A stretch of 64,000 nt of DNA from Lachnospiraceae bacterium. GTDB taxonomy: Bacteria > Bacillota > Clostridia > Lachnospirales > Lachnospiraceae. Shown in pieces: positions 60,101 to 62,489 of the stretch (position 1 is the first letter of the stretch; each line of letters starts with the position of its first letter). The notes below the pieces were generated by a model. That model was not told where the DNA came from, ran no database searches, and saw only the letters and a list, made by a program, of their open reading frames with translations. Where the stretch lies: NCBI GenBank assembly GCA_017433725.1, contig JAFRGQ010000027.1, forward strand, positions 17,564 through 81,563. Reading direction: 5' to 3'. Position numbers and translations under genes: made by a program.

Positions 60101-60472
60101 ACCGTCATATTTACACTTGCGGACGAGGACAAGGAGGAGGCACTTCCGCTCGCAAAGCGGTTCTATGATCTGGGTTTCAATCTCGAGGCGACGACTATGA
60201 CTGCGGAATATATGAGGGATCACGGAGTCAGAGTCAGGCTACGCAGGAAGCTGAGCGAGGGGAGTACGGAGATTCTGGATTCCATTCGTGCAGGCTATGT
60301 TAGTTATGTGGTAAACACGCGTGCTATTTTGTCCGGGGTTCACTACGAGGATGGGGTGGCTATCAGAAAATGTGCGAGTGAGCACAGGGTTACGATGTTT
60401 ACGTCTCTTGATACTGTGCGTGTGCTGCTTGATGTGTTGGAGGAGATGACGATAGGGGTGAGTCCGATTTAA
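57137..60472 (+). CDS. carB: Carbamoyl-phosphate synthase large subunit
   Basis: A 1,111-residue CarB, about 40 longer than usual. Both ATP-grasp halves are present: first half with [19 protein letters not shown], second with [17 protein letters not shown] (near 612), each followed by its carbamate or bicarbonate phosphorylation site, then the MGS-like C-terminal domain, which is short. The extra length is an Asp/Gly/Ser-rich insert near residues 440-493, inside the helical oligomerisation region (between MIRRS and [18 protein letters not shown]). It makes carbamoyl phosphate from bicarbonate, ATP and CarA-derived ammonia. Last gene of the operon; element R3 starts right after its stop. Confidence 0.94.
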
Positions 60473-60568
60473 TCTCTGACGCAGAATTCTCGTGACTTTA
60501 GAGCGTCGTGAGATGAATGCGCAAAATGAAACTTGTCTCTGACGTGGGATACAAACTCTCGTCAGAGA
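60473..60568 (+). repeat. Two-hairpin element R3, copy 2 (after carB)
   Basis: TCTCTGACG occurs at 60473-60481 and 60536-60544; the second copy pairs perfectly with CGTCAGAGA (60560-60568). Between them lies GCGCAAAATGAAACTT (60519-60534), 14 of 16 bases identical to the core of copy 1 at 48109-48124. The loop keeps TACAA and CTC as in copy 1, while the stems differ but still pair. Confidence 0.7.
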
Positions 60569-60585
60569 TTAAAAGTCTCCGCTAC

Positions 60586-60608
60586 ACAATGCTCCACTGG
60601 AGCATTGT
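60586..60608 (+). terminator. Hairpin after the carB operon, weak terminator
   Basis: Perfect 10-bp arms ACAATGCTCC and GGAGCATTGT with loop ACT. The following TACGTATGCTT is not a good T-run. It may help end the gltB-carB transcript. Confidence 0.5.
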
Positions 60609-60705
60609 TACGTATGCTTAGGCACGGCGGATTGAAGCTGCGCATTAAGGAAGGTGCTTTGCACCATGCATGGCGCGGTAAGAACGCTTAGGAGTCTCTG
60701 AAAAA

Positions 60706-60734
60706 TTGACGGGATAGTATACTTATGATATACT
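60706..60734 (+). promoter_or_regulatory. Strong promoter of the small-ORF cassette (sense)
   Basis: TTGACG (60706-60711), exactly 17 bp, TATACT (60729-60734). The transcript would begin near 60741 with TCCACA-GAGA-TGTGGA. Confidence 0.82.
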
Positions 60735-60836
60735 TTATATTCCACAGAGATGTGGAAAAGTGTCCGAAAGGGCACAGGAGGGATACACGAAAGCGTAGAG
60801 CGGTTGGCCATCATTCTCCGAAAGGGGGTGATGCTT

Positions 60837-60926
60837 ATGCCTATTACTCTGACATTCCATGTGTTTGGATATACCATCACAGTGAGAATCAAGACGAAAA
60901 GCGACAACCGCCACTCGGGCAAGTGA
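60837..60926 (+). CDS. 29-residue peptide, candidate type I toxin
   Basis: ATG 60837 to TGA 60926 encodes 29 residues: a hydrophobic, beta-branched N-terminal part (MPITLTFHVFGYTITVRI) and a basic polar tail (KTKSDNRHSGK). AGGGGG (about 60823-60828) lies 8 nt upstream; an ATG at 60831 is too close to it. That site sits in a CTCC-GAAA-GGGG hairpin, so translation should be masked. Two more hairpins with GAGA and GAAA loops precede it (60742-60756; 60760-60775). The stop codon lies inside the terminator hairpin. Small toxins of type I systems have this size and layout, but the sequence does not match Fst, TxpA or BsrG as I know them. Not seen as a conserved named family by me. Confidence 0.6.
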   Translation: MPITLTFHVFGYTITVRIKTKSDNRHSGK

Positions 60927-60936
60927 CGGTTGTTTA
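60905..60936. terminator. Hairpin at the end of the small ORF, probable bidirectional terminator
   Basis: Arms CAACCGCCACT (60905-60915) and AGTGACGGTTG (60922-60932), one mismatch, loop CGGGCA. TTTAAATAAG follows on the plus strand and TCGCTTTTCGTC on the minus strand. It is where the two convergent transcripts would meet. Confidence 0.6.
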
Positions 60937-60997
60937 AATAAGTTTAAACACTAAATCTTACTCGAGGCCAACCGCTTTTCGCTGTGTCCCTCTTTCA
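60905..60997 (-). ncRNA. Predicted antisense RNA (antitoxin candidate)
   Basis: Transcription from the minus promoter at 61004-61032 would begin near 60997 and run to the shared hairpin, giving an RNA of roughly 90-100 nt. It would be antisense to the 3' end of the small-ORF mRNA, as RatA is to txpA and SR4 to bsrG. Predicted from promoter and hairpin only. Confidence 0.45.
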
Positions 60998-61003
60998 TTT
61001 ATC

Positions 61004-61032
61004 ATTATATTGATAAAAATAAGTTCCGTCAA
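61004..61032 (-). promoter_or_regulatory. Strong convergent promoter of the small-ORF cassette (antisense)
   Basis: Minus strand: TTGACG (61027-61032), exactly 17 bp, perfect TATAAT (61004-61009). It faces the sense promoter 270 bp away. No minus-strand protein gene follows for many kilobases, so its product is likely a non-coding RNA. Confidence 0.82.
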
Positions 61033-61175
61033 GATGTCGGGAAAGACAAACCGCCTTCAGATTCTCAGTCTTTTTCGCTCGACGATATAGTATAATACTC
61101 TTAAGTTCAATTCTCGCTCACGAGACTTATCATGGACTCGAAGACGCTCGTGGATCTAAATCGGAGACAAAAACT

Positions 61176-62489
61176 ATGAAAATGAAGACAGTGCAAATAA
61201 TCACAGCTATACTCTGTGCGACACTTCTTATCGGTTGCGCAGGTGCAGCGGAACCCAAGGCGGAAGAGGAGAGGACGGATGTCATGGAGAGAGACAATTT
61301 TGCGGAAACGGATTCGTTGAAAACGGATATAATGGAAAAAGAAACGGCTGAAACAAAAAACGATGCAACTGAATCGGAAGCGGAGGGGGCTGACGCAACT
61401 GCTTCAACTGCAGAAGAATCAGCTTCAGTAACCCAAAATAAGACCGGGCAAAAGGATAGCTCCGCAGTTCAGGGCTCTGCTATGTCCGCATCCGGCGAAG
61501 CCTTCATGAAACTCAAAGAAATCAAAGTGACGGACATTCAGCCGCTCCGCATCGGACAGGTCGAAGATGCAGACGCCGCCACAGGCATGACCGTCCTTAT
61601 TTCCGAAAACGGCATGCGGGCCGGACTCGATGTGCGCGGAGGCGGACCTGCGTCCAGAGACAGCCAGATGCTGAATCCCCTGATGTCTATGCAGCAGATA
61701 CACTCCATCGTCCTTTCAGGCGGCAGTGCATTCGGCCTGGGTGCGGCAAATGGCGTCATGGATTATCTGGAAGAACACGACATCGGCTTCGACACCGGCG
61801 TCGCGAAGGTGCCTCTCGTGGTGCAGTCGGATATATATGATCTCACTGTAGGCGCAGCGGATGTGCGTCCGGATAGTCAGATGGGATATGAGGCAGCGAA
61901 AGCGGCATTTGAAAATCCGAACTACAAGGACGGCAACTACGGGGCAGGATGCGGTGCCTCTGTCGGAAAGATCACCGGCATGGAAAGAGCCATGAAGACG
62001 GGCGTCGGCAGCTATGCCGTTCAGGTTGGCGATCTGCAGATCGGAGCGATTGTGGTCGTCAACGCCCTGGGTGATATCTACGACTGGAAGACCGGGAACC
62101 AGATAGCCGGCCTTCTCAGCGAGGACAAAACGAAGCTCGCGAGCACAATGGAATCCATGAGCGCTTCGATTGAAGCAGTCGATAACAAGTTCACCGGAAA
62201 TACGACTATTGCGGTGATTATTACAAATGCAAATTTCAACAAATCTCAGCTCTGCAAAATCGCCGGGATGGGACATGACGGATATGCAAGATCCATCAAC
62301 CCGGTACACACCTCCGCGGACGGTGACAGCATCTACGCGGTCTCTGTCGGTGATGTGAGTGCAGACCAGGATCTGGTCGGTTCTCTCGGCGCGGAGGTGC
62401 TGAGTGAGGCAATCATCCGTGCGGTGACGTCAGCCGACAGTGCGTATGGGCTGCCGTCGGCGGCGGAGCTTGGTTTCGTGGCAAAATAA
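61176..62489 (+). CDS. P1/S58-family (DmpA-like) peptidase lipoprotein
   Basis: A 437-residue lipoprotein: lipobox LLIGC (Cys near 22), a Glu/Thr/Ala-rich linker to about residue 105, then a DmpA/S58 Ntn-hydrolase domain. Family features: GMTVLISENGMRAGLDVRGGGPASRD, SIVLSGGSAFGLGAANGVMDYLEE and GNYGAGCGASVGK. In this family the nucleophile sits at the G-x-G/C-x-S/T-x-G stretch where the chain self-cleaves; here Cys and Ser are both available (near 259-262). It would be an aminopeptidase outside the membrane. A TATAAT at 61091-61096 is the likely -10. A terminator follows. Confidence 0.85.
   Translation: MKMKTVQIITAILCATLLIGCAGAAEPKAEEERTDVMERDNFAETDSLKTDIMEKETAETKNDATESEAEGADATASTAEESASVTQNKTGQKDSSAVQGSAMSASGEAFMKLKEIKVTDIQPLRIGQVEDADAATGMTVLISENGMRAGLDVRGGGPASRDSQMLNPLMSMQQIHSIVLSGGSAFGLGAANGVMDYLEEHDIGFDTGVAKVPLVVQSDIYDLTVGAADVRPDSQMGYEAAKAAFENPNYKDGNYGAGCGASVGKITGMERAMKTGVGSYAVQVGDLQIGAIVVVNALGDIYDWKTGNQIAGLLSEDKTKLASTMESMSASIEAVDNKFTGNTTIAVIITNANFNKSQLCKIAGMGHDGYARSINPVHTSADGDSIYAVSVGDVSADQDLVGSLGAEVLSEAIIRAVTSADSAYGLPSAAELGFVAK

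What the first reader, a model, noticed from the sequence alone, without database searches (positions are those of the whole stretch)
60700..61035. Candidate new type I toxin-antitoxin cassette: 29-residue ORF between convergent promoters
Seen directly: two facing promoters with 17-bp spacers (TTGACG/TATACT at 60706-60734, TTGACG/TATAAT at 61004-61032); a 29-codon ORF with a good ribosome binding site at 60837-60926; three leader hairpins with GNRA loops, the last hiding that site; a hairpin at the ORF end where both transcripts would stop; and a long inverted repeat enclosing all of it. Known: txpA/RatA, bsrG/SR4 and par/fst pair a toxin of about 30-60 residues with a convergent antisense RNA, with masked translation and 5'-3' foldback. 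Inference: this is such a system. The peptide sequence does not match those toxin families as I know them.
Basis: partly seen in the sequence, partly recalled or inferred. Interest (0 to 1): 0.78.

Follow-up and report, generated by a model that had tools for sequence, protein, structure and literature searches.

The report
Widespread candidate type I toxin-antitoxin family
This is one copy of a widespread gene pair in gut and rumen Clostridia in which a short, possibly toxic peptide seems to be held in check by an RNA made from the opposite DNA strand; the peptide looks unlike the membrane-helix toxins of known systems of this kind.

Summary
The 29-codon ORF, facing promoters, SD-masking hairpin, end-of-ORF hairpin and enclosing inverted repeat recur in about 100 loci of Lachnospiraceae, Oscillospiraceae and other Clostridia, some on viral contigs. 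The peptide is under purifying selection (dN/dS 0.09-0.29). In 40 loci found with peptide profiles, 34 carry an 11-12/12 antisense promoter (0.1% of shuffles). Nearly all intact ORFs have it at 10/12 or better (98 of 101); most broken ones keep it (23 of 29) though few keep a sense promoter (5 of 29). Toxin plus antisense antitoxin predicts this. Toxicity and transcripts are untested.

The arms are inverted, not direct, repeats; they coevolve and favour G-U over A-C, so they probably pair in an mRNA that reads through the inner hairpin. The leader has no specific complementarity to its own antisense RNA, unlike par/fst. The peptide is cationic with beta-strand, not transmembrane-helix, periodicity. 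No Pfam or NCBIfam family matched 68 members better than E 0.004, and no Rfam family the window. Verdict: a new variant of type I toxin-antitoxin, confidence about 0.7.

The parts
60706..60734 (+). toxin (sense) promoter, TTGACG-17-TATACT with TG before the -10
   Evidence: a sense promoter at 10/12 or better in 23 of 40 profile-found loci
60740..60757 (+). 5'-terminal mRNA hairpin (GAGA loop)
   Evidence: several pairs are not kept in the close set as aligned
60760..60775 (+). second leader hairpin (GAAA loop), with compensatory changes
   Evidence: pair 60761-60774 T-A 9, C-G 3 of 18; pair 60763-60772 T-A 6, C-G 8, T-G 3 of 18
60776..60812 (+). arm 1 of the closing stem; resembles in sequence the first part of the antisense RNA
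60810..60833 (+). hairpin with GAAA loop that masks the Shine-Dalgarno AGGGGG (60823-60828)
   Evidence: SD paired with mean probability above 0.8 in 90 of 97 loci
60837..60926 (+). 29-codon toxin-candidate ORF, MPITLTFHVFGYTITVRIKTKSDNRHSGK, stop included
60904..60933 (.). 13-pair hairpin over the last codons and stop; probable terminator of the antisense RNA (T-run on the - strand); dictates codons of the N-R-H tail
60964..60994 (+). arm 2 of the closing stem; 5' part of the antisense RNA when read on the - strand
60993..61003 (+). U-rich tract just after arm 2, possible 3' end of the full-length mRNA (inferred)
61004..61032 (-). antisense (antitoxin) promoter, TTGACG-17-TATAAT
   Evidence: 11-12/12 in 34 of 40 profile-found loci and about 92% of 98 pattern loci
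60890..60997 (-). inferred antisense RNA of about 100 nt, complementary to the ORF end and 3'UTR
   Evidence: median predicted length 99 nt in 90 loci; transcript not observed

Best explanation
A cis-encoded, antisense-RNA-controlled toxic peptide module (type I toxin-antitoxin in working principle) of a family I found no description of. A sigma-70-type promoter makes an mRNA of about 260 nt (inferred). Its SD is masked by a local GNRA-loop hairpin as soon as it is made, and its leader (arm 1) pairs with its 3' end (arm 2), so the full-length mRNA is closed and poorly translated (inferred by analogy with aapA and hok). A stronger facing promoter makes an antisense RNA of about 100 nt covering arm 2, the 3'UTR and the last codons, and ending at the hairpin over the ORF end. 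It pairs with the 3' half of the mRNA and probably feeds it to RNase III, as reported for TxpA/RatA (inferred here). If antisense synthesis stops, the mRNA is translated into a short, cationic, amphipathic beta-patterned peptide that probably damages the membrane or self-associates (inferred). Shown by computation: conservation, coding, promoter-like sites, RNA pairing, and the near-constant presence of an antisense promoter beside intact ORFs. Inferred: transcripts, toxicity, repression, RNase step.
For: Purifying selection on the peptide: dN/dS 0.09, 0.18, 0.29 in three length classes. Antisense promoter 11-12/12 in 34 of 40 loci found with peptide profiles, 0.1% of shuffles; sense promoter 10/12 or better in 23 of 40. 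Asymmetric loss: antisense promoter 10/12 or better in 98 of 101 intact-ORF loci and 23 of 29 broken ones (Fisher p 0.004), sense promoter in 73 of 101 and 5 of 29 (counted). Arms pair better within a locus than between loci in 94 of 98 and 35 of 40, with compensatory changes. G-U exceeds A-C 60 to 15 in the core stem columns without the fixed wobble (summed), which points to + strand RNA. SD masked in 90 of 97. Tail codons obey the hairpin: R is CGC in 32 of 35 against 3 of 48 in the core. Tandem arrays, a copy on a phage-like contig and mixed neighbours fit a self-contained module.
Against: No transcript, toxicity or antitoxin test. [quoted passage not shown]), so the toxic mechanism is unknown. 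Read-through of the inner hairpin rests on base-pair statistics only, and the + strand also has some T after the hairpin (52-72%). Present in a minority of genomes (16 of 299). Three of 101 intact ORFs lack the antisense promoter, one of them (L117) with a good sense promoter, 11/12. The pattern loci were chosen by the hairpin, which favours loci keeping the antisense terminator; the profiles behind the 40-locus set were built from those loci and include the hairpin-coded tail, so that set is less but not wholly free of this bias. SD hairpin halves coevolve less clearly (own better than cross in 58 of 78). In the window's predicted folds the SD is masked in the truncated mRNA too, so how translation ever starts is not explained.
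Confidence: 0.7

Rival explanations
1. An antisense-regulated small peptide that is not toxic: a regulatory, signalling or envelope-active peptide kept off by the same RNA architecture.
For: All evidence here is for coding, RNA structure and antisense control, none directly for toxicity; the peptide is not a transmembrane helix.
Against: Intact ORFs are rarely without the antisense promoter (3 of 101) while broken ones often keep it (23 of 29); several layers of repression (masked SD, closing stem, strong antisense promoter), tandem arrays and carriage on a phage-like contig are habits of toxin modules. No consistent neighbour orientation suggests a fixed partner gene.
Confidence: 0.2
2. RNA-first system: the ~100-nt antisense RNA is the functional product (a small RNA acting elsewhere), and the peptide mRNA is its decoy or sponge.
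For: The antisense promoter is the better conserved one and persists in many loci with a broken ORF; the mRNA leader resembles the antisense 5' end of the same locus (own above cross in 91 of 98).
Against: The peptide is under strong purifying selection; beyond a fixed core the antisense 5' sequence varies between loci together with arm 1.
Confidence: 0.06
3. A MITE-like mobile repeat with terminal inverted repeats, the ORF being incidental.
For: Inverted repeats; several copies per genome in the genus and tandem copies elsewhere; mostly intergenic position.
Against: Promoters lie outside the arms; frame-specific selection; G-U bias points to RNA-level pairing; single copy in its own genome. 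A true dispersed repeat lies next door, 60468-60695, and is separate.
Confidence: 0.03

Closest known systems
par/fst (Fst/Ldr family, pAD1)
   Same: Convergent promoters, toxin of about 30 residues (Fst 33), antisense RNA meeting the mRNA at a hairpin terminator, SD hidden in a leader stem-loop (PMC7472228, passages).
   Different: par has direct repeats that give the two RNAs a second region of complementarity at the toxin start site; here the repeats are inverted and leader and own antisense are no more complementary than mixed pairs (own better in 47 of 98). No peptide of 88 has the P-x-x-x-G motif.
txpA/RatA and bsrG/SR4 (B. subtilis)
   Same: Antisense RNA overlapping the 3' end of the toxin mRNA (recalled); TxpA/RatA duplex degraded by RNase III (PMC12390103, passages).
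   Different: No TxpA- or BsrG-like family among the matches of 68 members (not checked that the libraries hold one); peptide not a transmembrane helix.
aapA/IsoA (H. pylori) and hok/Sok
   Same: 5'-3' long-distance pairing of the toxin mRNA plus local SD-masking hairpins (aapA: PMC6733600, passages; hok recalled).
   Different: Here arm 2 lies beyond the ORF and is also the antisense RNA's own 5' region; 3' processing is not shown.
YrzI small-protein family (TIGR02413, PF09501)
   Same: Weak N-terminal resemblance: best E 0.0093 (NCBIfam, 5 of 68 members at E up to 1) and 0.0041 (Pfam, 8 of 68).
   Different: The window peptide scores below the curated cut-offs (16.1 vs 47.05 and 14.8 vs 23 bits).

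Membership tests
type I toxin-antitoxin (general) | short ORF under selection as a protein | tested here: met
   dN/dS 0.09-0.29 in frame
type I toxin-antitoxin (general) | antisense RNA gene overlapping the toxin mRNA | tested here: met
   by sequence only: conserved antisense promoter and terminator-like hairpin; transcript not observed
type I toxin-antitoxin (general) | peptide is toxic and antisense RNA prevents it | not testable with these tools
   only indirect: asymmetric loss of toxin and antisense parts
membrane-associated type I toxins | hydrophobic alpha-helical transmembrane segment (PMC8309996, passages) | tested here: not met
   1 of 87 peptides reaches 19-residue hydropathy 1.6; moment at 165 degrees 2.1x shuffles, at 100 degrees 0.92x
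par/fst | direct repeats making leader and antisense complementary | tested here: not met
   0 direct-repeat families in 60400-61400; own better than cross 47 of 98
par/fst | shared bidirectional terminator | tested here: inconclusive
   hairpin shared, but T-run weaker on + strand and arm pairing suggests read-through
par/fst | Fst-like peptide with P-x-x-x-G motif | tested here: not met
   0 of 88 peptides have it; no Fst/Ldr family among matches of 68 members at E up to 1
TxpA/BsrG | toxin sequence family | tested here: inconclusive
   no such match among 68 members, but it was not checked that Pfam or NCBIfam hold such a model
aapA/IsoA, hok (5'-3' closed mRNA) | long-distance 5'-3' helix in the toxin mRNA | tested here: met
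   coevolving arms, 94 of 98 and 35 of 40, compensatory pairs; that the mRNA extends to arm 2 is inferred
aapA/IsoA, hok (5'-3' closed mRNA) | activation by 3' processing | not testable with these tools
   needs RNA ends
YrzI family | score above curated cut-off | tested here: not met
   window peptide 14.8 vs 23 and 16.1 vs 47.05 bits; bit scores of the other members are not shown there
any Rfam family | gathering score | tested here: not met
   0 matches in the window; two sub-threshold matches at 60650-61100, 17.4 vs 45 and 16.3 vs 50 bits

The most novel reading that the evidence does not exclude
A new class of type I toxins that act without a transmembrane helix, as cationic amphipathic beta-hairpins (a turn between two alternating strands), repressed by a circuit in which the mRNA carries in its leader a copy of the antisense RNA's own 5' sequence. 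The mRNA thereby occupies the antisense target in cis, so closing stem and antisense RNA compete for the same 3' site. The toxin's conserved C-terminal tail exists because the antisense terminator must be encoded there.
Probability: 0.4. Interest if true: 0.85.

Novelty: new variant of a known kind. Interest (0 to 1): 0.7.

Why it matters
If toxic, this is a large type I family in common gut and rumen Clostridia that is easy to miss: the ORF has 25-38 codons, no gene is listed under the match in Vescimonas fastidiosa (that gene table is incomplete by its own description), and published searches filter for transmembrane helices (PMC12390103, passages; PMC6563280, section read). It would add a second structural class of small toxin, a regulatory circuit distinct from par/fst, and a natural set of orphan antisense units and broken ORFs in which to study how such modules live and die.

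Tried and rejected
Rejected: par-like direct repeats. YrzI membership (no YrzI match in the own genome at E up to 0.001, control rang in Bacillus subtilis only of 14). A known RNA family. Attenuator or leader peptide for a downstream gene: neighbour orientations are mixed (+>- 17, ->- 14, +>+ 13, ->+ 6 of 50). MITE: see rivals. Led nowhere: phage collection with a 25-aa family peptide (no match; the window peptide gave 2 records); the search for related loci; structure prediction (unavailable); literature searches: 0 papers; 0 papers with any of five peptide strings; 122 papers, 25 listed; 1,232 papers, 15 listed, none by title on such systems; 1 paper; the Rae1/yrzI paper is not held; PMC10100781 (passages) calls the yrzI operon's products peptides of unknown function.

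Limits: promoter scores use a simple consensus. Pattern loci were picked by the hairpin. 22 of 98 loci had no clear arm anchor and were left out. The 60 to 15 count of G-U to A-C takes columns -1 to 8 without the fixed wobble column -2 (54 G-U, 0 A-C), chosen after seeing the table; columns -6 to -3 give 50 to 18, and columns 9 to 13, beyond the stem where Watson-Crick pairing is rare, give the opposite, 27 to 80. T-run profiles used 67 of 98 loci. 2 of the 30 'broken' loci (L132, L133) keep a family-like ORF and failed only my SD rule; one search covers 130 sites, so 29 of those 30. Sequences are related, so p-values overstate independence. In one search I used 40 places: 26 of the 27 (L185 is the same place as L188) and 14 of the 16 (own copy already counted, one had no locus); the partial hit L193 was left out. 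In one search the three tail exceptions are an upstream R-H in L199, L206 and L207, as their peptides show.

Full report
What is there. The region 60740-61000 folds far better than shuffles (z -8.8). The cassette lies between a carB-like ORF (ends 60472) and a lipoprotein-like ORF (from 61176); both names are recalled from the translations. One copy was found in its own genome.

Relatives. The peptide alone finds 13 of 299 genomes of the same family at E up to 0.1; a 68-row profile finds 16 of 299 at E up to 0.001, 3 of 391 in the class sample and 5 of 398 in the phylum sample at 1e-4, with up to 9 matches in one genome; the own genome is counted each time. An earlier 15-row profile gave 22 of 392 in the order sample at E up to 0.05, only 6 of them below 1e-5 or close to it. 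Ten viral contigs also hold it. Of 139 sites in these loci, 131 had room, and 101 of these have an intact 22-40-codon ORF with an SD ending in the hairpin. In the window's genus at least 8 of 31 genomes hold matches of about 190 bp or more to the element, and the closest relative found has it in the same place after the same gene (L129; aligned). In Vescimonas fastidiosa it lies after the polynucleotide phosphorylase gene with no gene listed under it (that gene table is incomplete).

The peptide is real. With the start codon and the hairpin-coded tail left out, dN/dS is 0.09 (32 distinct cores of 25-aa peptides), 0.18 (33 of 27 aa) and 0.29 (14 of 29 aa); the two shifted forward frames give 0.84 to 4.1. 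Of the reverse frames, one gives 0.19-0.38, as expected where its third positions face those of the ORF, and the others 0.86 to 6.2. Invariant or nearly so in the 68-row alignment are T6, H8, T15, N24, R25, H26, S27, K29. Residues alternate: the hydrophobic moment at 165 degrees is 2.1 times that of shuffles, at 100 degrees 0.92 times (a small peak at 95 degrees is 1.12); mean net charge +4.8; 1 of 87 peptides reaches a transmembrane-helix hydropathy.

The tail is RNA-driven. In the profile-found loci the R of the R-H pair uses CGC in 32 of 35 against 3 of 48 in the core, and H uses CAC in 32 of 35 against 5 of 40. In some distant members the tail residues change while a hairpin stays (L199, L203, L207); my strict motif for the stem matched 31 of 40. 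So the hairpin seems to be what is conserved there; its T-run is stronger on the - strand than on +.

The antisense gene. Among 98 distinct pattern loci (7 from viral contigs) about 92% have an 11-12/12 facing promoter, against none in shuffles; of 95 scoring 9 or more, 89 have the -10 end 61-90 nt beyond the stop. The sense promoter reaches 11-12 in 47%. In the 40 profile-found loci: 34 at 11-12/12 against 0.1% of shuffles, sense 23 at 10 or more. The predicted antisense RNA has a median of 99 nt (90 loci). Intact ORFs have the antisense promoter (10/12 or better) in 98 of 101 cases; broken ones keep it in 23 of 29, while sense promoters fall from 73 of 101 to 5 of 29. Orphan antisense units are thus common and unguarded intact ORFs rare, as expected if the ORF is harmful without the antisense; choosing loci by the hairpin favours the first half of this.

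The closing stem. Arms from the same locus pair better than arms from different loci in 94 of 98 (mean -49 against -35 kcal/mol; shuffled -27) and 35 of 40. In 18 close relatives pairs change on both sides, e.g. 60787-60983 A-T 11, T-A 5; 60782-60988 G-C 10, A-T 5; 60784-60986 T-A 8, C-G 6, T-G 3. Departures from Watson-Crick favour G-U over A-C: 191 to 50, with 237 others, in all aligned arms, and 60 to 15 in the core stem columns without the fixed wobble (summed; the other columns are given under limits). That is a property of + strand RNA, so the mRNA probably reaches arm 2 by reading through the inner hairpin; a U-rich tract follows arm 2. Because the repeats are inverted, leader and antisense 5' end are alike in sequence (own above cross in 91 of 98) and not specifically complementary (own better in 47 of 98, means -42.89 and -42.86, shuffled -42.43). 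By this test the antisense would act on the 3' half of the mRNA, unlike par (PMC7472228, passages).

How it most likely works. Translation is blocked twice in cis (SD hairpin, 90 of 97 loci; closing stem) and once in trans by the antisense RNA at the 3' end. This resembles aapA/IsoA mRNA folding (PMC6733600, passages) combined with a txpA/RatA-like 3' overlap (overlap recalled; RNase III degradation of such duplexes: PMC12390103, passages). In the window's predicted folds the SD is masked both in the full-length and in the truncated mRNA, so how translation ever starts is not explained. Toxicity, repression and RNase action are inference.

Context and novelty. Elements are mostly intergenic (7 of 52 overlapped by an ORF of 100 aa or more) with no preferred neighbour orientation, occur in tandem (five hairpins in L058, three in L172), and on a phage-like contig near an anti-repressor gene (L030). 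A 2019 review says experimentally validated type I systems in Clostridia were those of C. [quoted passage not shown] No paper in the held library contains any of five peptide strings, and I saw nothing on this family in the listings; papers not held or not listed could still describe it.

Noticed in passing
window 60468-60695: A separate dispersed repeat of about 228 bp between carB and the cassette: 19 further matches in the own genome, some of them pieces of one copy and only 15 of 99 candidates scored, and many in the genus. Its part 60468-60573 is bounded by TTTAATCTCTGACG / CGTCAGAGATTAAA inverted repeats.
   Followed up: partly
L058:397-2205: Five tandem copies of the hairpin about 450 bp apart, four with intact peptides (three different), the first broken: an array of paralogous modules.
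   Followed up: partly
L030:11383-12627: Phage-like contig with the element about 475 bp from an anti-repressor gene; the same peptide recurs in L027 and L031.
   Followed up: partly
   Followed up: partly
window 60828-60831 / 60877-60880: A second possible partner for the SD region inside the ORF (GUGA with UCAC), paired in 18 of 18 relatives but confounded by conserved codons; could be an alternative SD-masking fold as in aapA3.
   Followed up: no
L129:1054-1080: The closest relative found lacks 11 bp within the sense promoter region compared with the window, while its antisense promoter region is kept.
   Followed up: no
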